NCBI GenBank assembly: GCA_040752395.1
Contig: JBFMHD010000023.1
Span: forward strand, 1-19,175
DNA from: JBFMHD01 sp040752395 [NCBI: Candidatus Hydrogenedentota bacterium]
GTDB lineage: Bacteria > JBFMHD01
DNA length: 19,175 nucleotides
Direction of reading: 5' to 3'
Positions 584 through 19,126 of the stretch are shown here, one piece after another. Below the pieces are notes generated by a model. It searched no databases. It was given only the letters and a program-made list of their open reading frames with translations, and was not told where the DNA came from. The position numbers and the translations under genes are program-made. Position 1 is the first letter of the stretch. Each line of letters opens with the position of its first letter.

Positions 584-623
584 CTGTGAGTGAAATCAAA
601 GTTTCATGGACAGGTATAACTGT

Positions 624-1049: not shown

Positions 1050-1366
1050 ATAACGGTCTTGATGAACGGACGATTGAACAGATACGGTCAGTTTTATCCT
1101 GTTTCAAATCAATTAAAAAGGTTGTGTTATATGGTTCCAGGTCAAAGGGCAATTTCAAGAAAGGTTCTGATATCGATCTTGCTCTCTATGGCAAAGAACT
1201 GACATCAAAAACAGTTAATGAAATAGCAGACAGGCTCGATGACCTGCTTCTACCCTATAAGTTTGACCTCACCATTGTTTCCAGTATAACCAATCCTGAT
1301 TTGATAGACCATATCAACCGAGTGGGAATTGTATTATATCCAGTTTCAGAAAAAATTGGTAGTTAG
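1046..1366 (+). CDS. MNT nucleotidyltransferase (HI0073/MntA-like antitoxin)
   Basis: A 106-residue minimal nucleotidyltransferase. The segment LYGSRSKG...GSDIDLALYG carries the complete GS-x10-D-x-D motif (Gly-Ser near residues 31-32, the two Asp about 12 later), which binds the NTP and metal. In characterised pairs the MntA partner silences the HEPN toxin by AMPylating or otherwise nucleotidylating it. The start ATG overlaps the HEPN stop by four bases, so the two are made together. Catalytic residues look intact here even though the HEPN partner's RNase motif looks altered. The gene could also be a general HI0073-type NTase without toxin control. Confidence 0.85.
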   Translation: MNNGLDERTIEQIRSVLSCFKSIKKVVLYGSRSKGNFKKGSDIDLALYGKELTSKTVNEIADRLDDLLLPYKFDLTIVSSITNPDLIDHINRVGIVLYPVSEKIGS

Positions 1367-4915: not shown

Positions 4916-5332
4916 TTAATTAGAACCTCCTTTTTTTGTTGATATGGTAATACCCGAAGCACCGGCTTTACGGGCTATATCCATAACACGTACCGCAAGG
5001 TCAAGCGGTATCTGGTTATCTGCTTTTATTGTTATGTGATTTATTTTTTTTATATCAATTTCATTGCTTAATATAGAAAAAAGGTTGTCTATCATAACCT
5101 TTTTATCACCAAGATAGACTTCTCCTTGCTGTGATATAAAAATTAATATTTCTTGAGTCCGTTCAATATTTGCAGTTTCAGCTTGGGGTAAAGTTATTTT
5201 TATTCCCGGATAAATGATAAAATGTGCGGTCAGCATAAAAAATAAAAGCAGCAGGAATACAACATCAACAAGCGGTGTTATATTAAGATACAGAAACGTT
5301 TTTTTCTGTCTTAACAATAATTCCTGGTCCAA
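4916..5332 (-). CDS. exbD: ExbD/TolR biopolymer transport protein
   Basis: A 138-residue inner-membrane protein with one membrane helix, partner of ExbB in the proton channel that powers TonB. The conserved NITPLVDVVFLLLLFFML (about residues 17-34) contains the proton-carrying Asp (near residue 23). The periplasmic domain ends with ITIKADNQIPLDLAVRVMDIARKAGASGITI, typical of ExbD/TolR. The start codon is TTG (5330-5332) with GGAGG at 5339-5343, six bases away; no earlier ATG exists and the next Met is inside the helix. Its end contains the ribosome site of the TPR gene. A heptad-repeat element separates it from exbB. Length is normal for the family. Confidence 0.9.
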   Translation of the reverse strand: MDQELLLRQKKTFLYLNITPLVDVVFLLLLFFMLTAHFIIYPGIKITLPQAETANIERTQEILIFISQQGEVYLGDKKVMIDNLFSILSNEIDIKKINHITIKADNQIPLDLAVRVMDIARKAGASGITISTKKGGSN

Positions 5333-5355
5333 AATTTTCCTCCGATCAGTTAATT

Positions 5356-5442
5356 AGTCCACTGTCCACGCTCAACGGTCCACAGTATGCAGTTGATGAT
5401 CCACTTTCTTTCTGTGGACTATGGACTGTGGGCCATGGACTA
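5356..5442. repeat. Heptad palindromic repeat 1 (exbB-exbD junction)
   Basis: An 87-bp element starting AGTCCACTGTCCACG and ending GGACTGTGGGCCATGGACTA. The left half is made of RGTCCAY heptads and the right half of their reverse complement, so it can fold into a long imperfect hairpin. It starts directly after the exbB stop codon (5443-5445) and ends 13 bases before the exbD ribosome site. Confidence 0.85.
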
Positions 5443-5928
5443 TTAGTGTTCTATCTTCTCCCTCACGGTCTCTTTAATCAAAATAGCAATACCATCAGCT
5501 TTACCTTCAAAATAATGATAAAATAACGATGTCGGTATAGCAACTGAGAGACCGGCTGCTGTGGTAAGTAATGCCTCCCAGATACCACCTGCAAGCACGC
5601 TCGCATCCACACCACCACCAAGATTCTGGATTACAATAAACGCTTTTATCATACCGAAAACCGTGCCAAGAAGACCAAGTAACGGCGTTACGTTGGCTAT
5701 AACAGCAAGACCACGTAGATTTTTTTCGAGCAAACGAACTTTTTGCGACCCTGTTTTTAGTATCTCTTTTTTATTCTCCAGATTCTGCAGATAATCAATA
5801 AATTTCTGTAATCCTTTTGACTCTTTCCAGAAACAATAAGCTCTTTCCAGTATGATACCCACGGCTATAATGGAACATATAAAGATAGGTATCATCAGTA
5901 TCCCGCCTTTAGATAAAAATTCTATCAT
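5443..5928 (-). CDS. exbB: Short ExbB/TolQ/MotA-family proton channel subunit
   Basis: A 161-residue MotA/TolQ/ExbB-domain protein, the multi-helix partner of ExbD. Helix 1 is near residues 8-30 (GGILMIPIFICSIIAVGIIL), helix 2 near 78-97 (TPLLGLLGTVFGMIKAF) and helix 3 near 118-140 (ALLTTAAGLSVAIPTSLFYH), all with family signatures. It is shorter than usual ExbB/TolQ (about 200-240): the cytoplasmic stretch between helices 1 and 2 is only about 45 residues. The start ATG is one base after the upstream chlID stop, so translation is coupled; only a weak AGGTG lies upstream. Its TAA stop touches a heptad-repeat element. Function in this operon, energising the receptor via TonB, follows from the neighbours. 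Confidence 0.88.
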   Translation of the reverse strand: MIEFLSKGGILMIPIFICSIIAVGIILERAYCFWKESKGLQKFIDYLQNLENKKEILKTGSQKVRLLEKNLRGLAVIANVTPLLGLLGTVFGMIKAFIVIQNLGGGVDASVLAGGIWEALLTTAAGLSVAIPTSLFYHYFEGKADGIAILIKETVREKIEH

Positions 5929-5929
5929 A

Positions 5930-7933
5930 TCACAACACCTCTCTTACGATTCCTGCTATATTTTCAGCCTTAAGATTCTCCAGCCGGTAATATGCCGCAC
6001 ACATTACTTCAGAGAGTTGTTTAAGTTTTTCAAACCTCAAGAACCCATTTTCTGTATCAATCACAATCGATTTTATGCCTGAAGATTTTATCTGTTCTGC
6101 AACTCGGATGGATTCGGAGAATGCATCAATATTCTGGCTCATACTTACGTTGGCTTTACCGTCGGATATAAGTACAAGCACAGGTTTTATGTTTTTGTCC
6201 CTGTTAAGTTCGTTCTGAATAACTTTGAATCCCTGCATCAATCCTTTGGATAACGGTGTCTTTCCTCCTGTGGGTAGTGATTCAAGAGTTTTTTTTGCCA
6301 TCTCAACACTGGAGGTGGGATTAAGTACAACTTCTGCACTATCTCCTTTAAACGCAACAAGTCCCACTCTGTCTCTTTTTTGATAAGAATCTATAAGAAG
6401 CGAAAGTATCGCACCCTTTGTTTCAATCATACGCTGGTTTACTCCCATTGAACCGGATGAATCCAGTATGAAAACAATCGTGCTTCCTATTTTTCTGGCT
6501 CTAACCTTGTTTTGTATATCCTGCTGCTTTATTATTAGTCCACTGTTCACGGTCGATGGTCCACGGTCTTGCTGCGGACTGTGGACTATGGACTGCCGAC
6601 TAATTTGATGCGGTGCTGCAGCACGTATGGTTGCATCTATGGCTATATCCTCAACTTTACCGTTTGCGTTCCTGCTCCTGGTATACCGTCCCTGTCTGGT
6701 ATTAGAGGTAGTAGTGCTGCGTCTTCCTGTACCTGTTTTAGGTTCTTTATCTTTTACGAATGTAAAGGATTTCACTTTGAAAGTGTCGCCTGAAGGAAAA
6801 TTTGTTTCAGTATTATTATTCGGGTTATGCTCTGGTTTATTTTGCTGGCTATTATGAGAATGATTATTATTTTTATTGTGATTAGTATTATTATGCTCGT
6901 GTTTATGTTTTTCTATTGATTTATCAATTTTATCAAGGTTTATTTGGGGTTCCTGAAATGGTTTGCGTCTCATCCGATGGTACATCACCAATTCAGCAGC
7001 TTCTTTCACGTCTTGTTCAGTAACATTTGTTCTGCCATGATACGCAGCTATTGTGCTTGCAACCTTGAGCATAGATATATCAGCTCTGTGTCCATCCACT
7101 CCCATATCAACACAGATCGAAGCAATAAGTTTTACAGTCTCGTCTGAATATTCAACCTCAGGGAAAATATTAATCCCCTTGATAATAATCTCCTGCAATT
7201 TTTTCTCTTCCTCAGCCCATTTTCGTTCAAAACTATGTGGGTCTTTCTCATACTCTAAAGTTCTGCTCACAATCTGCATTCTCATTTCTATATCCTGAAT
7301 ACCCTCCACTTCTACGCACAGTCCGAACCGGTCCAGGAGTTGAGGCCGTAGTTCCCCCTCTTCCGGGTTCATAGTACCTACAAGAATAAATTTTGCAGGA
7401 TGAGAATACGATACACCTTCTCTTTCGATAATGTTCACTCCCATAGCTGCAGAATCAAGCAGTATATCCACAAGATGGTCGTCAAGCAGATTGATCTCGT
7501 CAACATAAAGTATGCCTCTATTCACCTGAGCGAGAATGCCAGGTTCAAACTTTTTCTCGCCAGTTTTGATTGCGGATTCTATATCCAGTGTACCGATTAT
7601 CCTGTCTTCGGTAGCGCCGAGTGGTAGATCTACAACCTGCATTTTTCTTTTCAATACAGGTAGCTGTTCACTAGTACGTTTTCTCTCAGTGCAATTATGA
7701 CACATCTGATCAAGTTTTACCGGGCTGCAATGGAATGGACAATCTGCTACAACTTCTATTTCTGGAAGAAGTGCTGCTAAAGCCCTTGCAGCGGTTGATT
7801 TAGCCGTACCTTTCTGGCCACGGATAAGTACTCCGCCTAAATGCGGATTGATAGCATTTAGAATCAGAGATTTTTTCATCTTTTCCTGACCAACGATAGC
7901 AGTAAACGGAAACACAGTTTTTCTACAACTCAT
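5930..7933 (-). CDS. Fused ChlI/ChlD-type chelatase AAA+/vWA subunit
   Basis: A 667-residue fusion of the AAA+ and von Willebrand A subunits that drive CobN/ChlH-type metal insertion. Walker A GQKGTAKST is at 39-47, Walker B ILYVDE at 141-146, and a four-Cys cluster (65, 69, 78, 81), usual in ChlI partners of CobN-type enzymes, precedes it. A His/Asn-rich linker follows (about 336-365). The vWA domain has the MIDAS DxSxS at Asp491-Ser493-Ser495 and TGGKTPLS later. The start is ATG 7931-7933 with GGAGG at 7942-7946; a longer frame upstream merely translates repeat DNA. Residues 445-466 are an in-frame heptad-repeat insertion just before the vWA domain. With cobN two genes upstream it should form one chelatase complex. 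The metal (Co, Mg, other) is not decided by sequence. Confidence 0.9.
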   Translation of the reverse strand: MSCRKTVFPFTAIVGQEKMKKSLILNAINPHLGGVLIRGQKGTAKSTAARALAALLPEIEVVADCPFHCSPVKLDQMCHNCTERKRTSEQLPVLKRKMQVVDLPLGATEDRIIGTLDIESAIKTGEKKFEPGILAQVNRGILYVDEINLLDDHLVDILLDSAAMGVNIIEREGVSYSHPAKFILVGTMNPEEGELRPQLLDRFGLCVEVEGIQDIEMRMQIVSRTLEYEKDPHSFERKWAEEEKKLQEIIIKGINIFPEVEYSDETVKLIASICVDMGVDGHRADISMLKVASTIAAYHGRTNVTEQDVKEAAELVMYHRMRRKPFQEPQINLDKIDKSIEKHKHEHNNTNHNKNNNHSHNSQQNKPEHNPNNNTETNFPSGDTFKVKSFTFVKDKEPKTGTGRRSTTTSNTRQGRYTRSRNANGKVEDIAIDATIRAAAPHQISRQSIVHSPQQDRGPSTVNSGLIIKQQDIQNKVRARKIGSTIVFILDSSGSMGVNQRMIETKGAILSLLIDSYQKRDRVGLVAFKGDSAEVVLNPTSSVEMAKKTLESLPTGGKTPLSKGLMQGFKVIQNELNRDKNIKPVLVLISDGKANVSMSQNIDAFSESIRVAEQIKSSGIKSIVIDTENGFLRFEKLKQLSEVMCAAYYRLENLKAENIAGIVREVL
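6537..6602. repeat. Heptad palindromic repeat 2, in frame inside chlID
   Basis: A 66-bp copy (exactly 22 codons) with ends AGTCCACTGTTCACGG and GGACTGCCGACTA and opposed heptad arms. It is read through in chlID as residues 445-466 (includes SIVHSP and RGPSTVNSGL), in the loop between linker and vWA domain. It is GC-richer than the surrounding gene. Confidence 0.85.
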
Positions 7934-7962
7934 AATAATTTCCTCCATTATTAATCCACAAT

Positions 7963-8036
7963 TAGTCCACGGTCGATGGTCCACAGTCCACAGAAAGAGT
8001 TCTGACCATAGTCTGTGGACCATTGAGTATCAACTA
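7963..8036. repeat. Heptad palindromic repeat 3 (3' flank of helix-bundle gene)
   Basis: TAGTCCACGGTCGATGG and further heptads on the left, then TCTGTGGACCATTGAGTATC on the right, which can pair. The inner edge includes the TAG stop of the four-helix-bundle gene (8034-8036). The outer edge lies 16 bases upstream of the chlID ribosome site. Confidence 0.8.
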
Positions 8037-8387
8037 TTTTATTGATTTTCTTAATGCCTGTAACATTTTGATAATTGTTTCTAACTCCGTATATAATTTT
8101 TGAAATTCATCTTGAGTCAGTAAATTTCTTCTTTTACCAATATATAAACAACTAACAACTTCAATTCCTGAACGAATTGCATATCCAATAAACTGTCTGA
8201 ATTCTGCATTTGTTTGTCCTGTAGAAGCTTCTGCTATATTTAATGCTATTGAATCATCAGCTCTTTTAATCTGGCTTATTAAAATATATAATTCTTCTTT
8301 AGGAAATTTCCTGGTTAGTTCATGAATCTGATAACTAAATTCATTTGCTTTTTGCCATACTTCCAACTTTTCAAATTTAAACGCCAT
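8034..8387 (-). CDS. Four-helix-bundle protein (23S-IVS/Avd-like)
   Basis: A 117-residue, all-helical, basic protein of the four-helix-bundle family first seen in 23S rRNA intervening sequences, structurally akin to the Avd accessory protein of diversity-generating retroelements. Typical features are FEKLEVWQKANEFSYQIHELT at the start, IKRADDSIALNIAEAS near 50-65 and EFRQFIGYAIRSGIEVVSCL near 70-90. ATG 8385-8387 has AGGAG at 8397-8401; a longer frame (to 8408) runs into repeat DNA. The biochemical role of lone members is unknown; Avd relatives bind nucleic acid. It interrupts the chelatase gene pair and is bounded on both sides by inverted heptad repeats, unlike every other gene here, so it looks inserted rather than part of the uptake pathway. 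Confidence 0.88.
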   Translation of the reverse strand: MAFKFEKLEVWQKANEFSYQIHELTRKFPKEELYILISQIKRADDSIALNIAEASTGQTNAEFRQFIGYAIRSGIEVVSCLYIGKRRNLLTQDEFQKLYTELETIIKMLQALRKSIK

Positions 8388-8401
8388 TTTTGCTTTCTCC
8401 T

Positions 8402-11400
8402 TTACCATGGACTGTGGACTGTTGACTGTTGACTGTGGACTATTATATCAATACTTCCACCCTGATATTCTTGTGTAATATCTCCCATTTTTTCTTCCAT
8501 CCAGCCCTCAATCTCAAGAAAAGTATGATTCAATCCTTTTAAAACGTCCGGGTCTGCGTTCCATAATCCTCGTTGTTCAGCTTCAAGGAACCGGCGTGCA
8601 AGTTCCTCAAGTGCCCAAGGATTATTCCTTTTAAAAAAATCACGCATCTCGTCATCAAGTACATATTTTTTTGTCAGTTCATCAAACACCCAGTCGTCAA
8701 CAACATCGGAGGTAGCATCCCAGTGGTAAACCATTACAGCTTTATGTGCCATGTCCTGTGCTCCTTTATATCCATGTTTTTTCATTCCATCAATCCATTG
8801 CGGGTTAAGTAATTTTACCCTGACAATCCGTTCTATCTCTTCTCTTAATTCACGGATTGTCGGATTAGCCGGGTCTTTTGTATCTCCCCAGAGCACTTTC
8901 GGGATCTGGTTAGTGAGTGCTCGTACTGCTGAGGTCATCCCTCCCTGGAAATCGTTATAACAACATCTGAGGAGATCAGTTTCATCTGTTTCCATCTTAT
9001 GGAATACTGTGGTTATTTTTTTTAGATTATGTACAAATTCACTGTAGCACTCTTGTCCAAAAATATTCTCACCGTATGCAAAACCACCGTGTTCTATAAA
9101 GGTTTCGCCAAGATCATTTACTGTTTTCCATGCGCTTGCTGCAAGCATCAATTTTACACCGCAACCGTAAGCACCAGGTTTTGCTGCAAATATTCTGAAA
9201 GTTGCAGCACGAGTAATCGCCTCATCATTAATATATGATTTATTTTGTGTTACGGTTCTTTTATATTCGTTAACATTTTTGCGTATATAATTTTGTGTCT
9301 CGTCTTCGTCAAGATTGGCAATCATTACAACAGTATTATCAAGCAGTTCTATTAAATTTGGCAAAGTATCCCTGACTATCTCACTTGTTCTGACTATAAC
9401 ATCTATACGTGGCCTATTTAATTCCTGTAATGGGATAGCCTCAACCCCTGTTACTACTCCTCCTTCATTCCAGATAGGTCTTGCCCCCATGAGATACAGT
9501 ATTTGTGCCAGTTGTTCACCGTCAGCACGATATGCATCTATACTCCATAATACCATCCCGATTTTTTCAGGGTATCTGTTCTCAATTGTCATAGATTTTT
9601 TCAGTATTTCGTCAGCTAATTTCATACCGATTTTATATGCTACTTTTGTCGGAATTTTTCGTGGATCAATACTGAAAATATTTCTGGCTGTAGGTAAAAC
9701 ATCGGTCTTACCGCGAGTTAATGTACCACCCGGACCAGGATCGATATATCGTTTATCCATCGCATCATTTACTCTGGGAATCTCTCGTTCTGTTTTCATC
9801 AGGTCTGGATAGAGGATATCTTTAATCCACATTAGAATAGAAAATAACCTGTTTATTTTTAATCTATTAAATTTTACTTTTTTAAATTGAGCGGAAATAA
9901 AATCTTCATCTATGTAATTATTAGTTAATAAATTCTCTATGATAGTTAGTGCAATTCTTTCGCTTTCAGCAATCAACTCTGTGTTCTGTTTTTCAATAAC
10001 TTCATCATAGTTATGACCCAATATTTCAAGAATGCATCTCCTGATTGATGGCAGGTTTCCATCATATTTGAGGATTGATAGTATCATCTTTGTGGTTTTT
10101 TTTATATCGTGTGTTTTACTCAATATATGCAAGCCATCGTTGATATTAGAATCTCTGAGGATAAATAATTTGTCATGCAACTTTTGAATTACTTCGTCTT
10201 CTTTCATCTTTTGAGCCGGATATTTTTCACAGGTAGGAAATAATCTAAATTTTATAGCAAGATTGCATATCTGTTCAAAAAGCAACTTTCTCCTTAATTC
10301 TTCATTTAACATAGCAGCATTATTGTATTGCAAAAGCAGGTCGTCCAGTTCAGCAAGTTCGTCATATAATTCAGCGGACTGCATATAAGGGATAATATGG
10401 TCAGTTATAACAGCATAAGCCCTGCGTTTTGCAATAATTGCCTCATTGGGATTTTTGCATGTATAAATATAAATATGCGGAACATTCCCTGTGATTATTT
10501 CAGGGAAACAATCCGAACTCATTCCGCAGGATTTACCGGGTAGAAATTCAATGTAGCCGTGAGTTCCTGTTGAAATAATTATATCCGAGGTTTCCTGTAT
10601 CCATTTGAAGGTTGCATAACATTGATGAGTAGGTGGTATCACAGGGTTATGCAGTATTTTACAAACCTCGCCATCACAGCGTGCACCATAACAGCCACGT
10701 TTTGGCTCTGCCATTATTTTTATATTCCCAAAAGTTAATCCAGTAATCACGATTTTATTGTTATACACCATACTCTGTCCTGGGGGTTCACCCCAATTAT
10801 CAACCATTTTTTTTCTATTGGCTTCAGATAACTGGTTGAAATATTCAGCATATTTATCCTGATCAATAAAGGTTATAGCACCACCTTTATTAACTATTTC
10901 ATCTATGGTTGTCCACCTGAACTCGCTGACTGCTTTTTTATTTATGAATTCATCCGACAGAGATTTCCCGTGTTCCGGTATATTTTCTATATTATAACCC
11001 TGGTCAGCCATATACTTCATTAATCTGACTACACTTTCAAATGTATCAAGTCCAACAGCTCCACCGAGAGAAGCCTCAACCCCAGCGCAGGGGTTATTGT
11101 GAAGTAAAATAGTAACTTTTCGCTGACTTTTTGGTAATTCCTTCAGCTTGAGCCAATTCTTTATACGCCTTACAAAAAATTCAAGCCGTTCTTTTATCGG
11201 TATCTGTATTGAATCGTAATCTTCTTTATTGTCTGACTCTCTTGCAAATATAACTGTAGGTTCTATAGTACCATTAAATTCGGGTTGGGCTACCCAGTAA
11301 ATCTGGTTTATTGGCGTAATTCCCTGTGCACTTTTTTCCCATTCTTCTTCTGTTCTACCAGTCGAACAAACCGCCTGGAAAACAGGTACATCTATAATAT

Positions 11401-11788
11401 CAAGTACTGTCTTATTATTATCTGATTTTATATCTTTGAGATACAGGAAAGAAGAAACACAGTTGATTATGGCATCGGTATTTTTTAATAGTTTTAAATC
11501 CACGTTATAGCCAGGACAATCCGTATCTGAATATGCCTTGTGTTGCGAAAATACAGGTACAGGAATTATATTATTTTTTTCAAGCTCCAAAATCAATGCA
11601 TCAATCCCGCGTAAATTTTTCCTTAATATCAGGGAATGAGAAAAAAAGATACCGACTTTATGAAGAGTTTTACCTGTAAAATCTATTGGTTTCTTTTTTC
11701 TATACCAGTTTAAATATTTGGTAATATTCTTAAAAATTATTTCACTTTCAGGATAATAAAATCCTGTGAATGGTATTTTCTGTTTCAT
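8402..11788 (-). CDS. cobN: CobN-type chelatase large subunit
   Basis: A 1128-residue CobN/ChlH-superfamily protein, the tetrapyrrole-binding subunit that exchanges metal with ATP-driven help from ChlI/ChlD. Family hallmarks include NNPCAGVEASLGGAVGLDT (about 230), GTHGYIEFLPGKS (about 406), IYIYTCKNPNEAIIAKRRAYA, PGPGGTLTRGKTDVLPTARN (about 683), NRYPEKIGMVLWS, RIFAAKPGAYGCGVK and HGGFAYGENIFG. The start is ATG 11786-11788 with AGAGGAG at 11799-11805, two bases after the upstream stop. Length is at the low end for CobN. The last 13 residues are translated from a heptad repeat, so the native C-terminus has been replaced. Related CobN-like proteins (HmuS) remove metal from haem, so haem or other tetrapyrrole processing is an alternative to cobalt insertion; the fused AAA+/vWA partner next door argues for an ATP-driven chelatase. 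Confidence 0.92.
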   Translation of the reverse strand: MKQKIPFTGFYYPESEIIFKNITKYLNWYRKKKPIDFTGKTLHKVGIFFSHSLILRKNLRGIDALILELEKNNIIPVPVFSQHKAYSDTDCPGYNVDLKLLKNTDAIINCVSSFLYLKDIKSDNNKTVLDIIDVPVFQAVCSTGRTEEEWEKSAQGITPINQIYWVAQPEFNGTIEPTVIFARESDNKEDYDSIQIPIKERLEFFVRRIKNWLKLKELPKSQRKVTILLHNNPCAGVEASLGGAVGLDTFESVVRLMKYMADQGYNIENIPEHGKSLSDEFINKKAVSEFRWTTIDEIVNKGGAITFIDQDKYAEYFNQLSEANRKKMVDNWGEPPGQSMVYNNKIVITGLTFGNIKIMAEPKRGCYGARCDGEVCKILHNPVIPPTHQCYATFKWIQETSDIIISTGTHGYIEFLPGKSCGMSSDCFPEIITGNVPHIYIYTCKNPNEAIIAKRRAYAVITDHIIPYMQSAELYDELAELDDLLLQYNNAAMLNEELRRKLLFEQICNLAIKFRLFPTCEKYPAQKMKEDEVIQKLHDKLFILRDSNINDGLHILSKTHDIKKTTKMILSILKYDGNLPSIRRCILEILGHNYDEVIEKQNTELIAESERIALTIIENLLTNNYIDEDFISAQFKKVKFNRLKINRLFSILMWIKDILYPDLMKTEREIPRVNDAMDKRYIDPGPGGTLTRGKTDVLPTARNIFSIDPRKIPTKVAYKIGMKLADEILKKSMTIENRYPEKIGMVLWSIDAYRADGEQLAQILYLMGARPIWNEGGVVTGVEAIPLQELNRPRIDVIVRTSEIVRDTLPNLIELLDNTVVMIANLDEDETQNYIRKNVNEYKRTVTQNKSYINDEAITRAATFRIFAAKPGAYGCGVKLMLAASAWKTVNDLGETFIEHGGFAYGENIFGQECYSEFVHNLKKITTVFHKMETDETDLLRCCYNDFQGGMTSAVRALTNQIPKVLWGDTKDPANPTIRELREEIERIVRVKLLNPQWIDGMKKHGYKGAQDMAHKAVMVYHWDATSDVVDDWVFDELTKKYVLDDEMRDFFKRNNPWALEELARRFLEAEQRGLWNADPDVLKGLNHTFLEIEGWMEEKMGDITQEYQGGSIDIIVHSQQSTVHSPW
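8405..8443. repeat. Heptad repeat 4 (cobN 3' end)
   Basis: A single-arm copy: on the plus strand CCATGGACTGTGGACTGTT followed by GACTGTTGACTGTGGACTA. It forms the last 13 codons of cobN (IVHSQQSTVHSPW) and the 5' flank of the four-helix-bundle gene. Confidence 0.8.
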
Positions 11789-11790
11789 AT

Positions 11791-12753
11791 CTACATTACT
11801 CCTCTTATCATCAGGATACATATTATAAATAATAACCTGGTACTAAGTCCAAGCATTGTAGAAGTGGTTACAATTTTAACGCCAAGAGAGAAGCCGAAGA
11901 TCGAGGTATATTTTGCAAGACCGCCTCTTAAAACAAATATCGGTAGCATCAGGAAACTGCCGAGCAGACAAGCAAGCATAGCGTCTATCTCGACAATCTT
12001 GCCATCATTAATCATAGTACCGATTGTTGTAGCACCAGCAATGGGACTAAAGATATAAGTGCCCACCGGGAGGGCTATTTCATCAGGTAGACCTAAAATA
12101 TCAGTAACTGGTACAACGACTTTTTCAATGTAAGATATAACCCCGGAATTAATACAGCAGAAAATAACAAACGTTATACAAACATACATAGTAGCCAATT
12201 TTAAGAATATTTTTAACTGTTGAAAATATGACAATCTATGTATCTTATTCTTTTGTAAAAAATTGTTGTTATATTTTTGCGATTTATCTGCTCCTGTGTA
12301 TCTCAACCTGGTCTTAATAACAATAAATATCAATATCATAATACTTGAAGATAAAAAACAAGTGAAATAGACCAGTCCAACTTTGAGACCTAATATGGGG
12401 ATAATAACCGGCATCTGATATGTGAAAGATTCTTTGATGTATACAGAGATAGAATTAAACAGAGCTCCAAGATAAGTCTGATATTCAGTCAGTATCCCTT
12501 TTTTATTCAGGTCAGAAAGCATAATATTACCGCTGAGTAACGACCCTATGGATATAACAAAAGTAAACGCAACTTCTCCTGGCAATCTTAACAATGGAAC
12601 AAGAAATGAGCCTATTTTACCTATTCTATCGAGAATGCCTCTATCAATCAGGCCCCAGGTCGCTGATATAGAGATAAACATAATTAGCAAAGTTCTGGGT
12701 ACAAAATCGAGCATATCAGCAATAGAAATGTTAATAACGTTTATAATGTTCAT
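11791..12753 (-). CDS. Gate-domain ('nucleoside recognition') membrane protein
   Basis: A 320-residue integral membrane protein with about eight hydrophobic segments in two similar halves (about 10-125 and 185-318), as in SpmA/SpmB-type and FeoB Gate proteins. Segments such as LLRLPGEVAFTFVISIGSLLSG and LGLPDEIALPVGTYIFSPIAG (one per half) are typical. Proteins of this type often sit beside cobN and Btu-like transporters and are suspected to move metal ions or cofactors; the substrate is unknown. ATG 12751-12753 overlaps the btuD stop as ATGA, which I prefer; ATG 12787-12789 would add 12 residues. Its first codons (MNIINVINIS) come from an AACATT-type repeat. The stop is two bases before cobN, so the two are coupled. 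Confidence 0.75.
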   Translation of the reverse strand: MNIINVINISIADMLDFVPRTLLIMFISISATWGLIDRGILDRIGKIGSFLVPLLRLPGEVAFTFVISIGSLLSGNIMLSDLNKKGILTEYQTYLGALFNSISVYIKESFTYQMPVIIPILGLKVGLVYFTCFLSSSIMILIFIVIKTRLRYTGADKSQKYNNNFLQKNKIHRLSYFQQLKIFLKLATMYVCITFVIFCCINSGVISYIEKVVVPVTDILGLPDEIALPVGTYIFSPIAGATTIGTMINDGKIVEIDAMLACLLGSFLMLPIFVLRGGLAKYTSIFGFSLGVKIVTTSTMLGLSTRLLFIICILMIRGVM

Positions 12754-12763
12754 AATGTTTTTA
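12727..12763 (-). repeat. AACATT tandem repeat, copy 2
   Basis: On the minus strand, an A-run then AACATTATG, AACATTATA, AACGTTATT, AACATT: four 9-nt units. It spans the btuD stop and the first codons of the Gate protein, supplying MNIINVINI. Confidence 0.6.
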
Positions 12764-13532
12764 CACATAGGGGGATGATATTTAAACATCCTGTTTTATC
12801 ACGCAATATTTCAACATTGACCCCATATACATCGAATATATTCTGTTCATTAAAAACCTGCTCAGCCGTACCGCAGACAAAAATTCTGCCAGACTTTAAA
12901 ATAATAACTCTGTCACTGTATCTTGCAGCAAGATTTAAATCATGAGACACCATAACAATAATCAGTCCGTTATTCTTACAAAGTTTTACCAAAAGTTCCA
13001 TAAGTTCTATTTGGTAGTTTATGTCAAGATGGAGTGTAGGTTCATCGAGCAAAAGAACAGACGGTTCCTGTGCCAGTGCCCGGGCTATGACCATACGCTG
13101 AAACTCACCACCGCTTAATTCTGTAATAAGTCTTGTCTCAAGATGTCGGATATCACAGAGATCAAGCGAATGTCTCACGACCTCATAATCTTTTTTTGAT
13201 TCAGATTCAAATGTACCCAAGTGCGGATACCTACCTATAAGAACAGTATCAAAAATAGTGAACGGGAACTGCGAGGATGAATTCTGCGGTACCACGCCAA
13301 TTTTCCGGGCGATGGCTTTCTCGCCAATGATACTGATATCCTCTTTATCAAGATAAACCGCACCTGTGTAAGGTTTAAGAGTATTGTTGATGCATTTTAA
13401 CAGTGTGGTTTTCCCTGAACCATTAGGTCCAACTATGGTAAAAAATTGTCCAGAGTCAACCTGAAAGGTTATGTTATCGAGAGCCTTGAAACTGTCATAA
13501 TAAAATGTAATGTTGTTAATTTTTATAAACAT
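12750..13532 (-). CDS. btuD: Fe-siderophore/haem/B12-type ABC ATPase
   Basis: A 260-residue ABC ATPase of the BtuD/FhuC/HmuV group that powers BtuC-type permeases. Walker A GPNGSGKTT is near residues 35-43, Q-loop VVPQNSS near 80, signature LSGGEFQR near 139-146, Walker B VLLLDEPT near 159-166 and the switch His in MVSHD near 195. Most likely start is ATG 13530-13532; an in-frame TTG three codons earlier is possible. Neither has a clear ribosome site, perhaps because repeat DNA occupies the upstream gap (13541-13569). It lies between the permease gene and the Gate protein gene, and overlaps the latter by four bases. Symbol by family and context; sequence does not separate vitamin B12 from haem or siderophore transport. 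Confidence 0.88.
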   Translation of the reverse strand: MFIKINNITFYYDSFKALDNITFQVDSGQFFTIVGPNGSGKTTLLKCINNTLKPYTGAVYLDKEDISIIGEKAIARKIGVVPQNSSSQFPFTIFDTVLIGRYPHLGTFESESKKDYEVVRHSLDLCDIRHLETRLITELSGGEFQRMVIARALAQEPSVLLLDEPTLHLDINYQIELMELLVKLCKNNGLIIVMVSHDLNLAARYSDRVIILKSGRIFVCGTAEQVFNEQNIFDVYGVNVEILRDKTGCLNIIPLCVKTL

Positions 13533-13540
13533 AGTTATCA

Positions 13541-13569
13541 AAATTTGTAATGTTCATAATGTTTTTTTT
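13541..13569 (-). repeat. AACATT repeat, copy 3 (btuC-btuD gap)
   Basis: On the minus strand an eight-A run, AACATTATG, AACATTACA, AATTTT. It begins at the btuC stop codon and fills nearly the whole gap before btuD. It shares the A-run plus AACATTATGAACATTA core with copy 2. Confidence 0.6.
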
Positions 13570-14582
13570 CAAAACCCCATTGTTTTTTTTCGTGTTCGCA
13601 AAAGAAAGAGAAAAAATGGTACACCTAAAATCGCTGTTATGATTCCAACCGGCAGTTCAGTAGGTGAAATAATCCGTCTTGCAAAAGTATCCATCCATAC
13701 AAGCAGAATGCCACCTGCGAAAGCTGATGCAGGAACCAGTATTCTGTGGTTCGGTCCCACAAACATCCGCATAATATGAGGTACAATAAGACCAACAAAA
13801 CCTATAACCCCTGAGACAGAAACAGCAGCAGCGGTTATAAGTGATGATAAAACAAGTATTATCTTGCGTGTGGTTTCAAGTTTGACACCAACATTCTGTG
13901 CCACCTCTTCACCCAGCATAAGTGCATTCAGTTCACGGTTGAACAGATAAAGGATAAACGTACATGGTACTATTACTGAAAAAGATACCAGTACATTGTA
14001 CCAGTCAGCTTTCCATAAACCGCCCATAAGCCAGAACACTATCTCCCGCAGATTGCTTTCAGAAGCATAATATTGTGTAAATGAGACCATTGCTGAGAAA
14101 AAAAGTGAGACAGCTATACCGGCAAGAAGTAATGTTTCCACAGGAACCTTGCCTTTCACCCGTGCGATGTAATAAACACAAAAAGCGGTTAATAATGAAA
14201 ACAAAAATGCGCCAGGTACGATTAACAATCTGGTCCATCCAAAGATAATAATAACCGATGCACCGAAAGATGCACCTGAAGCTATGCCCACGATATATGG
14301 CCCTGCCATCGGATTCCTGAACATACTCTGCATAGCACACCCGCTAACAGCAAGCGCCATACCTACAAGTATGCCAAGTAGCACTCGTGGTATCCTTACG
14401 CTCATAATAATTGCATATACATTGTGGTCCCATGTAATTGATACAGGTATCCCGAGTTTATAGAAAATTATCTTAAATATGTTTTTGCAGGAGATGTCTA
14501 CCGGTCCCTGTATTAAGCTGAGTATTACCGTGAATACAAAAAGGATTAAAAGAAAAAACATTATCGAACTATTATTTTTCAT
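13569..14582 (-). CDS. btuC: FecCD/BtuC-type ABC permease
   Basis: A 337-residue permease of the FecCD/BtuC family with about ten membrane helices. Signatures include SVRIPRVLLGILVGMALAVS (about 60-80), GCAMQSMFRNPMAGPYIVGI, GASFGASVIII, FWLMGGLWKADW, AQNVGVKLETTRK (the loop that contacts the ATPase) and VSGVIGFVGLIVPHIMR with ISPTELPVGIITAILGVPFF at the end. ATG 14580-14582 is chosen because the first helix begins just after it (MKNNSSIMFFLLILF); the longer frame adds 39 hydrophilic residues inside btuF. It overlaps btuF by 11 bases, with AGGA about ten bases upstream. It would move the ligand held by BtuF through the inner membrane. Confidence 0.92.
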   Translation of the reverse strand: MKNNSSIMFFLLILFVFTVILSLIQGPVDISCKNIFKIIFYKLGIPVSITWDHNVYAIIMSVRIPRVLLGILVGMALAVSGCAMQSMFRNPMAGPYIVGIASGASFGASVIIIFGWTRLLIVPGAFLFSLLTAFCVYYIARVKGKVPVETLLLAGIAVSLFFSAMVSFTQYYASESNLREIVFWLMGGLWKADWYNVLVSFSVIVPCTFILYLFNRELNALMLGEEVAQNVGVKLETTRKIILVLSSLITAAAVSVSGVIGFVGLIVPHIMRMFVGPNHRILVPASAFAGGILLVWMDTFARRIISPTELPVGIITAILGVPFFLFLLRTRKKTMGF

Positions 14583-15432
14583 TTTGAAATAATCCTGGGT
14601 GAAACCATTGAGCGAACTGTTTGAGCCCCTCAATACATCTGGGTGAATAATTGGTAAAATACACAGGTGATTTATAGACTCTGTTGTTTTTAATGGCATT
14701 TATGTTCTGCCAACCACTACGTGACCTCAGTTCTGAAACACTAACACCGTATTCTTCCACAATAATTACATCCGGGTTTTTTGAGATAATGTATTCATTA
14801 CTTAGCACAGGAAAACTCACAGGTTCATTTGCAGCAATGTTTATACCACCTGCGTATGTAATAAGGTCGTGAGTCAATGAGCCACGTGCTCTGGTTCTAC
14901 CAAGACTTCCTGCCTCGAAATAGACAAGCGGTTTTTTAGAAAGTTTTTCAACCTTGCTACAGATAAAATCTCTATCTTTCTCAATTAAACCTGCAATCTC
15001 TTCTGCTTCGGCTTCTTTATCAACAAGTTTACCAAGGTCTTTAACAAGCCGGATTACGTAATCAAGGGTGCAGGTTGAAACTACAAAAACCGGGATACCA
15101 TGGTCCTTGAAAATCTTAGAGTTTGAACTATCGCATATAACAATATCAGGCTTAAGTCCGAGTATCAGTTCAAGATTGATACTGCCAAAAGGTCTGCCTA
15201 CAGCGGTTTTTGATACTGCTTCCAACGGATACTGGCAGCTTGAACTTACACCTACCACTTTATTCCCGACACCAAGTAGAAAAAGTATCTCAGTTGCTGG
15301 ATTAGAAAGAGAGACAATCCGCTGTGGCACATCAGGTTTTGAAAATGTAGGAGCAGGTTTATACTGTAATCTCCATATAATTAAAAATATAAAAATAATG
15401 AGAATACATACCCCGATCAAAACCCTGCGCAT
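14572..15432 (-). CDS. btuF: BtuF/FecB-like periplasmic binding protein, membrane-tethered
   Basis: A 286-residue class III periplasmic binding protein. An N-terminal hydrophobic segment (about 4-20, VLIGVCILIIFIFLIIW) lacks a lipobox Cys, so it is probably held by an uncleaved anchor. Then come PQRIVSLSNPATEILFLLGV (about 36-55), GRPFGSINLELILGLKPDIV, the mid-protein helix, and SRSGWQNINAIKNNRVY near 245, all typical of BtuF/haem/Fe-siderophore binders. ATG 15430-15432 has AGGAG at 15441-15445; the 14 extra codons of the longer frame are heptad-repeat sequence. It is second in the operon after the receptor and hands ligand to the BtuCD-like transporter. Corrinoid versus haem cannot be told from these motifs. 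Confidence 0.9.
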   Translation of the reverse strand: MRRVLIGVCILIIFIFLIIWRLQYKPAPTFSKPDVPQRIVSLSNPATEILFLLGVGNKVVGVSSSCQYPLEAVSKTAVGRPFGSINLELILGLKPDIVICDSSNSKIFKDHGIPVFVVSTCTLDYVIRLVKDLGKLVDKEAEAEEIAGLIEKDRDFICSKVEKLSKKPLVYFEAGSLGRTRARGSLTHDLITYAGGINIAANEPVSFPVLSNEYIISKNPDVIIVEEYGVSVSELRSRSGWQNINAIKNNRVYKSPVYFTNYSPRCIEGLKQFAQWFHPGLFQNEK

Positions 15433-15453
15433 ACTACTTTCTCCTGTTATATT

Positions 15454-15554
15454 AGTCCACAGTCCACGGTTCACGGTCTTACTGTGGGCTTTTTTCTTCT
15501 AGCTGCGGACTATGGTCTGTTGACCGTGGACTATGGACTGTGGACTGTGGACTA
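15454..15554. repeat. Heptad palindromic repeat 5 (receptor-btuF junction)
   Basis: A 101-bp full copy: AGTCCACAGTCCACGGTTCA on the left and a longer right arm ending GGACTGTGGACTGTGGACTA. The right edge includes the TAG stop codon of the receptor (15552-15554); the left edge ends eight bases before the btuF ribosome site. It could fold as a long hairpin in the operon mRNA. Confidence 0.88.
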
Positions 15555-17846
15555 AAATGTGGTCTCCACATTCACGCCCCAGGTTCTGCCGCTCTGTTTA
15601 TAGTATTCATAATACTCCTTGTCAGCAATATTGTCACAGCTGAGTGATACTTTTACATTTGGAATCGGCACATACCATAGTTTTGCATCAACAACCGATA
15701 TCTTGTCATACGCACCGAACACTCCGGAAACAACATCAGAATTGTCGTCTTCATAATATATCTTGTCCCTATACCTGTATACAGTACAACAGCCGAATCG
15801 GCTGGTATTATAATCCAGCATAAGGTTGTATGAAACTTCTGGTATACAAGGAAGCTGTTTACCTACAATACCAGTATTATACGGATTTGAGGTTACTTTT
15901 GTTTTTGTTTGTGTATAGTTTCCAGACAGGGTCAAATTTTTCCCAAGTTTCTGCTCTATCTCCAGCTCAAAACCTGAAGACTCTGCTTTACCTATATTGT
16001 CTTTTTTTGTCATTTTAGCATTTACATTAACAGTATCATAACTCGTACCATAGTCTGCATTGATTGCAGTCACTTCGCTACTTGTCATCTGACGAGTGTA
16101 GATATAGTCCTTCATCCGGTTATCAAAATAACTCAATTTGACTGTAGTATTAACACCAGGCTGCCACTCAGTGCCTATATCAAATGCACGTACTTTTTCT
16201 GGTTCGAGGTCAGGGTTACCGCAGATGGCGTAAGTGGTATAGAACGTGCGTTTATACAAATCATAGCAAGATGGCGTATTGAACGCTGAACCATAAGAAG
16301 CCCTGAATATCAAATTGTTCGACGGCGTATATACAAGAGATAGCCTGGGTGAGATATCGTGTTCAGTGCGTGAGGTAAAAGATTTCTGAAGATAAGCACC
16401 GGACTTCAAATATTTCTGAAACCCGTCATATGTCTCCCAATCATCGTATCTTGCACCGAGATAGACCGTGGTTTTTTTGTTCAGAATAAATTCGTCTAAA
16501 AGAAATAAACCATATAGTTTGGACTTGCCTTTATAATTATCTGATACCTCTGTCTTGCTATCCAGATTTTTCCAATCATTGAGATTCCATTTTTCACTAT
16601 CAAGTTCATCTCTGCGCCAGTTGCCGCCGAAAGTTAAAAAATGTCTTTTATTTAACCGTAAATCAGTCTGGATATCCACAAGATAGATCCATTGAGGGTT
16701 CTCCATCACATAATCCGTACTGGTGGAATTATAAGCAAACCAATAAAACTGTTTACCATACCCGAGACTGAGTTTAATGTCTCCCCGTTTTAGTCCACTG
16801 TCCACGGTCCATGGTCCACGGATACTTATATCTCTTTTTAAAGTAAGATTATACAAATGTGTTGGACAGCCACCGTAAGTAGAAGTAAAATATTCATCAT
16901 ATATTGTAATCTTTTTTACAGTACCATTATCGTTAATATACGCGGTAGTATCACCCCATTCATCAGCACCATCGGAAATCCGTTTCAGATATGTGTGACC
17001 ATTGCGGTAACCATACTCGTAATCAGTATAGATATAACTCAATGTTAGTTGAGTAATGTCACTCATATCATAACTCAGTTTAACATTGTATGCTTCATCC
17101 TCATAATAATTGTCGCCCACATCACCCACAAGATATTTTTCGGCACCTGAGCTATCCTGGGTCTTTATCCATCCGGTAACACTTTCAACATTCCCCGCGG
17201 CATTAGTAGCAGATACAGTATAGAAATTGTTTATATATCCGTCTATCTTTCTCAGTCTTGTTGAGAGAAAGAACCCAAGTCTATCTTTTTTTCCGCTTAA
17301 CCCTCCATCAAGTAGTCTGGTATTATATGATTCATACCCAGTGCTCAGATGAACCTTCAATTTATCTTCAGGTATCTTTGTAATAATATTTACCACCCCG
17401 CCCATAGCATTATCGCCGTATAGAACAGAATAAGGTCCACGAACAACTTCGATGCGGTCAATCTGTTCCATAGTTATGGGTATTCTTCGCCAGTCAATAA
17501 CAGGCACACCGTCGACCAGGATAAGATTCCTGTTATATCCGTACAAACCTCGAATGTTGATGGTTGGCATAATATCCTGTGGTTTAGTTCTTTTATTAAA
17601 CACCCCTGGAGTTAGTCCTACAACCTGGTCAACAGATTTAACATTTATGCGTGAAATATCATCAGATGTTATCACTGTAACACTTGCTGGTGATTCCCTC
17701 ACAGGTTTTTCTGTTCGGGTTGCAGTTACCACAATTTCTTCCAGTTCATAAACTTCAGGCTTTGTATCTTCGTTATACGAAAACACAATTGTCGGGTGAA
17801 AGATGAACGTCAAACAAAAAATAAAAAGTACCGTAACTTTAGACAT
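15552..17846 (-). CDS. TonB-dependent outer-membrane receptor (BtuB/CirA class)
   Basis: A 764-residue receptor. A signal peptide (about 1-23) is followed by TonB box EEIVVTATR (36-44), a plug domain (about 48-160: PASVTVITSDDISRINVKSV, NIRGLYGYNRNLILVDGVP, RIEVVRGPYSVLYGDNAMGG) and a 22-strand barrel containing FRASYGSAFNTPSCYDLY and NPDLEPEKVRAFDIGTEW, ending in the terminal Phe that outer-membrane insertion needs. No FRAP/NPNL haem motif is obvious. It heads an operon with ABC importer, chelatase and TonB system, so a metallated tetrapyrrole such as a corrinoid is the likely ligand. Residues 343-352 (RGPWTVDSGL) are an in-frame heptad-repeat insertion in a loop. The TAG stop is the edge of another repeat. 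GAAGGG at 17856-17861 is the ribosome site, within a hairpin loop. Confidence 0.92.
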   Translation of the reverse strand: MSKVTVLFIFCLTFIFHPTIVFSYNEDTKPEVYELEEIVVTATRTEKPVRESPASVTVITSDDISRINVKSVDQVVGLTPGVFNKRTKPQDIMPTINIRGLYGYNRNLILVDGVPVIDWRRIPITMEQIDRIEVVRGPYSVLYGDNAMGGVVNIITKIPEDKLKVHLSTGYESYNTRLLDGGLSGKKDRLGFFLSTRLRKIDGYINNFYTVSATNAAGNVESVTGWIKTQDSSGAEKYLVGDVGDNYYEDEAYNVKLSYDMSDITQLTLSYIYTDYEYGYRNGHTYLKRISDGADEWGDTTAYINDNGTVKKITIYDEYFTSTYGGCPTHLYNLTLKRDISIRGPWTVDSGLKRGDIKLSLGYGKQFYWFAYNSTSTDYVMENPQWIYLVDIQTDLRLNKRHFLTFGGNWRRDELDSEKWNLNDWKNLDSKTEVSDNYKGKSKLYGLFLLDEFILNKKTTVYLGARYDDWETYDGFQKYLKSGAYLQKSFTSRTEHDISPRLSLVYTPSNNLIFRASYGSAFNTPSCYDLYKRTFYTTYAICGNPDLEPEKVRAFDIGTEWQPGVNTTVKLSYFDNRMKDYIYTRQMTSSEVTAINADYGTSYDTVNVNAKMTKKDNIGKAESSGFELEIEQKLGKNLTLSGNYTQTKTKVTSNPYNTGIVGKQLPCIPEVSYNLMLDYNTSRFGCCTVYRYRDKIYYEDDNSDVVSGVFGAYDKISVVDAKLWYVPIPNVKVSLSCDNIADKEYYEYYKQSGRTWGVNVETTF
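16791..16820. repeat. Heptad repeat 6, in frame inside receptor gene
   Basis: A 30-bp single-arm copy, exactly ten codons, read on the minus strand as RGPWTVDSGL. It differs from the matching half of the chlID copy (RGPSTVNSGL) at only two of thirty bases and is read in the same frame. Confidence 0.85.
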
Positions 17847-18981: not shown

Positions 18982-19040
18982 AGTTGTCTCTCATAATAGT
19001 TGTCTGTTTAGTTGCAAAAATATACACTTCCTTGCCGTAT

Positions 19041-19097
19041 CTTTCAATCTTTCAATCTTTGTGCCTTTGTGCCTCTGTGCTTCTTGCCTCTTGCTTC
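19041..19097. repeat. Low-complexity tandem repeat (TTTCAATC / TTTGTGCC units)
   Basis: CTTTCAATCTTTCAATC is followed by near-repeats of a 7-8-nt unit (TTTGTGCC, TTTGTGCC, TCTGTGC) and then a TTCTTGCCTCTTGCTTC tail. It lies upstream of thpR and shows no coding pattern. Its short period recalls the other repeat families here but the sequence is unrelated. Confidence 0.55.
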
Positions 19098-19126
19098 TAA
19101 TATATCATCTCTTTTAATATTCGAAG

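What the first reader, a model, noticed from the sequence alone, without database searches (positions are those of the whole stretch)
5356..16820. Dispersed family of 7-nt-unit palindromic elements peppering one operon
Six copies in about 11 kb share ends TAGTC...GACTA and are built from RGTCCAY heptads on one arm and their reverse complement on the other: 5356-5442, 6537-6602, 7963-8036, 8405-8443, 15454-15554 and 16791-16820. They are GC-richer than the genes around them. All six lie in the uptake operon; I saw none in the flanking 5 kb. They resemble in spirit Rickettsia palindromic elements and REP sequences, but the heptad architecture is different and I do not recognise a named family.
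Basis: partly seen in the sequence, partly recalled or inferred. Interest (0 to 1): 0.8.

Follow-up and report, generated by a model that had tools for sequence, protein, structure and literature searches.

The report
Seven-base-repeat elements with S23 gene
Short palindromes made of seven-base repeats, scattered through one bacterial operon, belong to a widespread family of mobile-looking DNA units built around a small four-helix protein gene (S23) best known from insertions in ribosomal RNA, and this may help explain why seven-base repeats are so common in bacteria.

Summary
The repeats are real. Elsewhere this is usual: S23 genes lie between inverted arrays of 7-nt units (inverted repeat in 80 of 108 S23 loci versus 4 of 130 control ORFs). 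Tandem periodicity is at lag 7 (62 of 115 loci near versus 6 of 115 far), sometimes lag 8. Heptad sequence varies but tends to follow S23 clade. At one intergenic site in one genus the unit is absent, present with either of two S23/heptad pairings, or decayed. Two copies in one genome share only S23 plus arms. A plasmid S23 unit with (GACNNNN)n arms lies inside a 23S rRNA gene, so classical rRNA intervening sequences and these operon elements look like one kind. I conclude: a mobile, IVS-class element family with gene-less solo palindromes. Movement, and S23 recognising its heptads, are inferred. My literature searches found no paper linking S23 genes in general to heptad repeats, though one IVS paper describes heptamers.

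The parts
8034..8408 (-). S23 / four-helix-bundle protein gene (23S rRNA IVS protein family), 124 aa as listed; likely true start at 8387 (MAFKFEKL...)
   Evidence: PF05635 E 2.8e-33, TIGR02436 E 6.1e-32; start inferred from a relative that begins ATGGCATTTAAGTTTGAAAA (L312)
8407..8442 (-). upstream heptad arm of the S23 unit (single arm); read through by the cobN frame, adding about 12 residues (VHSQQSTVHSPW) before its stop
   Evidence: pairs with 7963-8035 in the fold of 7958-8448
7963..8035 (-). downstream heptad arm of the S23 unit, itself a small palindrome; between the S23 stop and the likely chelatase gene start
   Evidence: (z -5.0); chelatase start inferred from the homologue
5355..5442 (-). 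solo palindromic heptad element between the ExbB/TolQ-like (5443-5928) and ExbD/TolR-like (4916-5332) genes
   Evidence: (z -4.7)
6536..6602 (-). solo palindromic heptad element inside the cobaltochelatase ChlI/ChlD-type gene (5930-8023), in frame, in the linker between AAA and VWA domains
   Evidence: window protein is 12 residues longer here than a 57%-identical homologue (L207); domains (z -4.4)
15453..15554 (-). solo palindromic heptad element between the TonB-receptor and periplasmic-binding-protein genes; the receptor's TAG stop is the element's terminal TAG
   Evidence: z -7.9; DNA z -6.9
16791..16820 (-). half element (one heptad arm only), in frame inside the TonB receptor gene
   Evidence: no hairpin by itself (z -0.09)

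Best explanation
The window carries one S23 unit and its derivatives. A unit is an S23 (four-helix-bundle) gene enclosed by inverted arrays of 7-nt repeats. Its two ends pair in the transcript into a long hairpin with the gene in the loop, as in the 23S rRNA intervening sequences (IVS). Units enter spacers between genes, tRNA clusters and rRNA; the hairpin is tolerated because it lies between functional parts or is cut by RNase III. The S23 protein, whose solved relative is a five-fold ring, recognises the triplet (here GTC/GAC) repeated every 7 nt in its own arms, which would explain why heptad type follows S23 clade. Units spread within and between genomes by a route not yet known, perhaps with a host reverse transcriptase or replication/repair at hairpins, since S23 resembles the retroelement accessory protein Avd. 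They decay by losing the gene and leave solo palindromes, which slippage lengthens and which may also be copied in trans. SHOWN by sequence comparison: S23 genes usually lie between inverted heptads; heptad type is coupled to S23 kinship; presence, absence and decay at one site; copies whose likeness ends with the arms; the same architecture inside a 23S rRNA gene. INFERRED: protein-heptad recognition, RNase III processing, trans-mobilisation, route of movement.
For: S23 gene between the arms in the window. 115 S23 loci: lag-7 tandem windows near S23 in 62/115 against 6/115 at 800-1000 nt; lag 8 11/115 against 0; lag 14 40/115 against 3/115; other lags 4-15 at most 1. Inverted-repeat score >=16 in 87/115 against 2/104 far flanks and 15/345 cross pairs. 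Reduced set: 80/108 against 4/130 control ORFs, Fisher 1e-33; 78/106 after dropping two more flank-sharing loci. Plasmids: 8 of 17 S23 hits examined, inverted repeat >=18 in 8/8, lag 7 >=20 in 7/8. Coupling: arms alike (score >=18) in 4-6% of pairs at S23 identity 20-45%, 11.8% at 45-50%, 32.5% at >=50%; Mantel r 0.24, 2000 permutations maximum 0.118. Strict GTC-spaced-7 rule: 18 of 44 rows of the window's S23 clade against 6 of 81 others (p 1.9e-5). In Omnitrophota, two RGTCCAY arrays found within about 60 nt of an S23 gene led to S23 proteins 77% and 67% identical to the window's; two S23 genes farther from such arrays were 34% and 36%. Mobility: at one site in the genus of G007 (Algoriphagus by title of L001) 19 of 49 placed loci have only 19-45 nt, 19 hold S23 or its fragments, 11 hold other inserts including remnants. 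L124/L215: two copies in one genome, 82% over 399 bp, likeness ends with the arms, flanks unrelated. rRNA: L309 lies in LSU rRNA (RF02541, 1699.8 bits) with GACNNNN arms and an open S23 frame.
Against: 28 of 108 loci show no inverted repeat by my cut-off. In the 15 kept loci drawn by S23 similarity from 296 Bacteroidota genomes it is 10 of 15 (12 of 15 with either sign). Control loci were element-rich, so control lag-7 is 18/130. Only 1 of 119 RGTCCAY pattern loci has an S23 gene beside it at the single-query tblastn limit used: most copies are solo, and by inspection several RGTCCAY genomes show no S23 with the same arms. Genome-level association is modest: S23 in 11 of 12 Omnitrophota pattern genomes (one of them the centre chosen for its elements) against 38 of 66 others (one-sided p 0.02). 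No target-site duplication or recombinase was recognised and no transposition was observed. Same-site loci in one genus could partly be vertical descent, and the 49 loci are not a random sample (30 best matches plus 20 picked for having inserts). GTC-type arms of the same-clade Algoriphagus units were judged by eye: strict 7-spaced GTC/GAC pairs occur in only 4 of 12, and the AATAACC rule was written after seeing the sequences; the strict rule fails for all six such units in the tree. One plasmid far-flank control was itself high (L308, score 26).
Confidence: 0.72

Rival explanations
1. Heptad arrays arise by polymerase slippage and hairpin-templated correction, and S23 genes merely insert into, or survive beside, such arrays; S23 plays no part in their origin or spread.
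For: Most pattern arrays have no S23 beside them; slippage has been proposed for the heptamer excess (PMC4692102, passages); arms vary in heptad number.
Against: Heptad type is coupled to S23 kinship; the short spacers at the Algoriphagus site do not hold the inverted arrays found with S23 there, though some show short heptad-like words; copies carry S23 and arms as one block; the arms are inverted around S23, not one direct array.
Confidence: 0.15
2. The heptads are binding sites of S23 acting as a post-transcriptional regulator; the solo copies are a regulon (here an uptake and cobaltochelatase operon), kept by selection rather than selfish.
For: Five insertions within one 11.5-kb gene cluster; sites avoid gene interiors (32 of 101 RGTCCAY sites inside ORFs against 1975 of 2380 random points); one paper proposed regulation by a protein binding TAACTGA sets (PMC4679880, abstract and section 24).
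Against: Presence, absence and decay at an orthologous site, units inside rRNA and beside tRNA genes, very different gene neighbours, patchy occurrence (12 of 78 genomes).
Confidence: 0.1
3. REP/REPIN-like DNA elements moved by an unlinked tyrosine (IS200-type) transposase, S23 being a passenger.
For: Hairpins, solo and paired arms, intergenic bias; REPIN precedent (PMC3116915, passages).
Against: No such transposase recognised among the window proteins scanned (not every ORF was scanned); coupling of arms to S23; no fixed core sequence.
Confidence: 0.08
4. The palindromes are ordinary terminators or RNA-stability hairpins.
For: They lie mostly between genes and fold well.
Against: Shared heptad sequence across phyla, in-frame copies inside genes, single arms that do not fold, no Rfam family at gathering score, the S23 link.
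Confidence: 0.02

Closest known systems
23S rRNA intervening sequences (IVS) with an S23 ORF
   Same: S23-family gene enclosed by complementary ends that pair into a stem. The published IVS of one intracellular bacterium also has tandem heptamers (GACAGAT) before the S23 start (PMC4990558, passages read), the same GACNNNN spacing as here.
   Different: The window's unit lies between protein genes; there are gene-less solo copies; heptads are variable and follow S23 kinship. The passages read treat the heptamers as strain variation within one IVS.
TAACTGA and other heptamer repeats of Beggiatoaceae, Cyanobacteria and Bacteroidetes
   Same: Tandem 7-nt units mostly between genes, patchy across distant phyla; L143, an S23 gene in the genome of L005 (Anabaena azotica), is flanked by TAACTGA heptads.
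   Different: Described without a linked gene in what I read. The author wrote 'no mechanism is evident' and suggested a repeat-binding protein might be the mobile element (PMC4679880, abstract, passages and section 24).
REP/REPIN elements with RAYT transposases
   Same: Dispersed short palindromes, a dedicated protein gene flanked by the same repeats, co-evolution of repeat type and protein (PMC3116915, passages).
   Different: Protein is a four-helix bundle, not a tyrosine transposase; repeats are 7-nt arrays rather than one 20-40 nt palindrome.
Rickettsia palindromic elements (recalled)
   Same: Palindromes that can sit in frame inside genes.
   Different: No heptads, no S23 (from memory, not tested).
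bAvd/Avd of diversity-generating retroelements
   Same: PF22296 bAvd weakly matches the window S23 (E 5.9e-4, below cut-off); a paper notes PF05635 resembles Avd (PMC10053308, passages).
   Different: No reverse transcriptase recognised among the window proteins scanned.

Membership tests
23S rRNA IVS (S23 type) | encodes an S23/PF05635 protein | tested here: met
   E 2.8e-33
23S rRNA IVS (S23 type) | complementary ends pairing around the ORF | tested here: met
   for the window; for 87 of 115 loci
23S rRNA IVS (S23 type) | located inside a 23S rRNA gene | tested here: not met
   window unit lies between cobN and the chelatase gene, no Rfam hit in the window; met for L309
23S rRNA IVS (S23 type) | excised from RNA by RNase III | not testable with these tools
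   needs RNA from the organism or an in vitro assay
REP/REPIN-RAYT | tyrosine (HUH/Y1) transposase gene flanked by the repeats | tested here: inconclusive
   none recognised among the window proteins scanned; the rest of the genome is not held
REP/REPIN-RAYT | one conserved 20-40 nt palindrome per family | tested here: not met
   arms are variable numbers of degenerate heptads
Heptamer tandem repeats (STRR/TAACTGA type) | head-to-tail 7-nt units | tested here: met
   window; S23 loci:
MITE | terminal inverted repeats with target-site duplication | tested here: inconclusive
   inverted ends present; no duplication recognised by eye at the Algoriphagus site or in L124/L215, not tested systematically
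Rickettsia palindromic element | family-conserved 100-150 nt sequence in frame within ORFs (recalled) | not tested
   no Rickettsia sequence compared; only 2 of 6 stretches here are inside ORFs

The most novel reading that the evidence does not exclude
A new, cross-phylum class of bacterial mobile element with no recombinase: a ring-forming S23 protein recognises triplets spaced every 7 nt in its own flanking arrays and drives copying, probably through RNA. The rRNA IVS, the TAACTGA-type heptamer arrays and much of the heptamer excess of bacterial genomes are its autonomous and non-autonomous members.
Probability: 0.4. Interest if true: 0.93.

Novelty: new variant of a known kind. Interest (0 to 1): 0.84.

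Why it matters
It ties together three loose ends: S23 proteins without known function, rRNA intervening sequences of unclear origin, and the unexplained excess of 7-nt repeats in bacteria. It turns them into one testable proposal (S23 binds its own heptads), and offers a way to guess, from the arms, which S23 clade belongs to which repeat family.

Tried and rejected
Searching the window's own genome: none is held. Papers on the heptad letters themselves: noise from primer sequences. Rfam on the window at gathering score: nothing, not even a cobalamin riboswitch in a cobN operon. Phages: no S23 match at E 1e-5. Structure prediction of the S23 protein from a single sequence: four helices but low confidence (pLDDT 62), so no fold search was made; PDB relatives by sequence are 2gsc and 2rld. 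A second flank definition gave fewer periodic loci (38 of 115 near, 8 of 115 far); it began beyond many arms because the home-made profile has long tails, and was replaced by flanks that start at the domain ends. L181 and L196 were found to select the same S23 gene; both stand in the 115 and in the tree. L196 was dropped, with six same-site or near-identical loci, for the 108; L168/L175 and L183/L222 still shared a flank, and dropping L175 and L222 gives 78 of 106. The 115 loci are 69 of the 76 places, 26 automatically fetched from the longer capped list, and 20 of the 21. Loose inspection first suggested about 20 of 21 Bacteroidota loci have heptads; by the fixed rule it is 12 of 15 kept. Rejected: ordinary terminators; pure slippage kept only as a rival.
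Full report
THE OBSERVATION. The window holds RGTCCAY heptad arrays at the coordinates given. A two-heptad pattern with up to 2 mismatches gives 30 hits against 0.91 expected in 200 shuffles (maximum 4), all between 5356 and 16819. The stretches are GC-rich (0.47-0.60 against 0.367). Four fold as RNA hairpins far better than shuffles (z -4.4 to -7.9); 8400-8448 and 16786-16825 do not (z +1.35 and -0.09) and are single arms.

THE MISSED GENE. Between 7963-8035 and 8407-8442 lies a 124-codon frame on the minus strand that is an S23 / 23S rRNA-intervening-sequence protein (PF05635 E 2.8e-33; TIGR02436). The two arms pair around it in the RNA fold of the whole 491-nt stretch (z -3.7). The window therefore holds one S23 unit, three solo palindromes and one half element. 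Host genes are an ExbB/ExbD-like pair, a ChlI/ChlD-type cobaltochelatase subunit, CobN, a periplasmic binding protein and a TonB receptor. Element 6536-6602 is in frame in the linker between the AAA and VWA domains; a homologue 57% identical is 12 residues shorter there. The receptor's TAG stop is the element's terminal TAG.

WIDE DISTRIBUTION. In 12 such genomes a shorter pattern occurs 7 to 366 times (overlapping heptads counted); the same pattern read backwards occurs 0 times in 10 of 12 (exceptions G003, 9, and G010, the genome of L005, Anabaena azotica, 361). PF05635 is over its cut-off in 12 of 12 and 40 of 44 element-bearing genomes, 48 of 52 distinct, and in 0 of 14 control genomes. 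These genomes are those of part of the 119 loci. Among 78 Omnitrophota genomes (the centre G003 and others drawn evenly) 12 carry the pattern (1 to 122 matches) and 49 carry S23; S23 is in 11 of the 12 and in 38 of the other 66 (one-sided p 0.02). RGTCCAY sites fall inside ORFs, by a crude ORF call, in 32 of 101 cases against 1975 of 2380 random points.

S23 GENES LIE IN INVERTED HEPTAD ARRAYS. By eye first, then measured. In 115 S23 loci, 28-nt windows with at least 20 matches at lag 7 occur within 200 nt of the S23 domain in 62, against 6 at 800-1000 nt; lag 8 gives 11 against 0, lag 14 40 against 3, all other lags from 4 to 15 at most 1. Inverted-repeat scores of at least 16 between the two flanks occur in 87 of 115, against 2 of 104 far-flank pairs and 15 of 345 mismatched flank pairs. 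After dropping seven duplicate, near-identical or same-site loci it is 80 of 108, against 4 of 130 other ORFs in ten fetched regions (those regions are element-rich, so lag 7 in controls is 18 of 130); dropping two more flank-sharing loci gives 78 of 106. In the 15 kept loci drawn by S23 similarity from 296 Bacteroidota genomes it is 10 by inverted repeat and 12 by either sign. In plasmids, 8 of 17 hits were examined (my choice, for spread of organisms): inverted repeat at least 18 in 8 of 8, lag 7 at least 20 in 7 of 8; the far control of one, L308, was also high.

HEPTAD TYPE IS COUPLED TO S23 KINSHIP. Over 2874 pairs from different genomes with unrelated far flanks, similar arms (score >= 18) rise from 4-6% at S23 identity 20-45% to 11.8% at 45-50% and 32.5% at 50% or more (1 of 8 pairs below 20%); Mantel r 0.24 against a maximum of 0.118 in 2000 permutations. 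A strict rule, GTC or GAC three times at 7-nt spacing, marks 23 of 114 loci near S23 and 2 of 115 far. On the S23 tree (125 rows, many weak forks) it marks 18 of 44 rows of the starred clade holding the window against 6 of 81 outside, 16 changes against a shuffled mean of 22.4, 0 of 500 shuffles as low. As a forward check, in Omnitrophota genomes I fetched two places where the RGTCCAY pattern lies within about 60 nt of an S23 gene and two where it lies farther off. The first two S23 proteins are 77% (L313) and 67% (L312) identical to the window's; the other two are 34% (L314, array about 600 nt away, own arms of another type) and 36% (L315, arms not examined).

PRESENCE, ABSENCE AND DECAY. At one spacer (propionyl-CoA-carboxylase-like gene | M42-peptidase-like gene, names by my reading) 71 of 72 genomes of one genus (Algoriphagus by the title of L001) match a joined-flank query; 25 are contiguous by my reading of the rows. 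Fifty loci were fetched, the 30 best matches and 20 picked for having inserts, so their proportions are not population frequencies. Of these, 49 could be placed: 19 have 19-45 nt, 19 hold an S23 gene or fragment, 11 hold other inserts of 94-240 nt, several with remnants of arms or S23. Seven S23 genes or fragments (L257, L260, L263, L271, L274, L280, L291) have AATAACC-type arms; the other 12 have none of that type and by eye have GTC-type or related arms, though strict 7-spaced GTC/GAC pairs occur in only 4 of the 12 (the AATAACC rule was written after seeing the sequences). On the tree the six distinct units of the second kind that were added (L255, L279, L284, L287, L289, L290) fall in the window's starred clade and the four intact ones of the first kind (L260, L271, L274, L280) fall elsewhere.

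COPIES. In genome G012 two S23 loci on different contigs are 82% identical over 399 bp; the match begins with the first arm and ends with the second, and the flanks are unrelated. Three further same-genome pairs (L142/L246, L219/L220, L251/L252) are alike over 414-518 bp.

LINK TO RIBOSOMAL RNA. The S23 hit on Azospirillum lipoferum plasmid AZO_p2 (L309) lies inside a large-subunit rRNA match (RF02541, 1699.8 bits, spanning the insert); its S23 frame is open and its stem is GAC every 7 nt. A published IVS study reports three tandem GACAGAT heptamers before its S23 start and variable numbers between strains (PMC4990558, passages). L122 lies between two tRNA genes and L149 beside one. So rRNA IVS and operon elements look like one kind.

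MECHANISM. Shown by sequence comparison: a discrete unit of S23 plus inverted heptads, coupled types, presence and absence, copying. Inferred: S23 recognises its heptads. Hints are the solved relative 2gsc, with five chains, described as a homopentamer ring (PMC4990558, passage), and strongly conserved polar residues Q46, R49, S53, N57, E60 and E83 (88-99% of 125 rows); the first four fall in one predicted helix of a low-confidence model. RNase III cleavage is inferred from IVS literature. The route of movement is unknown; resemblance to Avd (weak; PMC10053308, passages) suggests an RNA-based route, which I did not test.

NOVELTY. Searches of an open-access library listed no paper that, from titles, abstracts and the passages I opened, links S23 genes in general to heptad arrays. 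Most subscription papers and bioRxiv are not covered, and one IVS paper does describe heptamers. Classical work on cyanobacterial short tandem repeats is known to me only by recall and by citation in PMC4692102 (passages).

Noticed in passing
window 19040-19098: Another tandem tract of 7-8 nt units of a different type (ATCTTTCA, CTTTGTGC, TGCCTCT) near the right end of the window; possibly a second heptad family cut by the window end.
   Followed up: no
window 606-1366: HI0074-type substrate-binding protein and a nucleotidyltransferase side by side, somewhat like an MntA-type pair (below that family's cut-off).
   Followed up: no
L305, L308: On two cyanobacterial plasmids the S23 unit sits between cas6 and cas4; cas1d of type I-D is annotated next in L305.
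   Followed up: partly
L309 (NC_016586.1): An S23 intervening sequence with an open frame inside a plasmid-borne 23S rRNA gene; the plasmid gene table carries no RNA genes and lists nothing there.
   Followed up: yes
L122, L149: S23 units between two tRNA genes (L122) and beside one (L149).
   Followed up: partly
L129, L137, L183, L193 and seven others: Eleven of 115 S23 loci have lag-8 rather than (or besides) lag-7 tandem arms, suggesting units of 8 nt.
   Followed up: partly
L201 7132-7395 and 10407-10651: In the genome of L019 (Chryseosolibacter) paired RGTCCAY arms enclose loops of about 190-210 nt of unknown content.
   Followed up: no
L197, G001:C4: RGTCCAY arrays cluster within about 9 kb around a same-type S23 gene, with one further site in that genome by the exact pattern, recalling the local clustering in the window.
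   Followed up: partly
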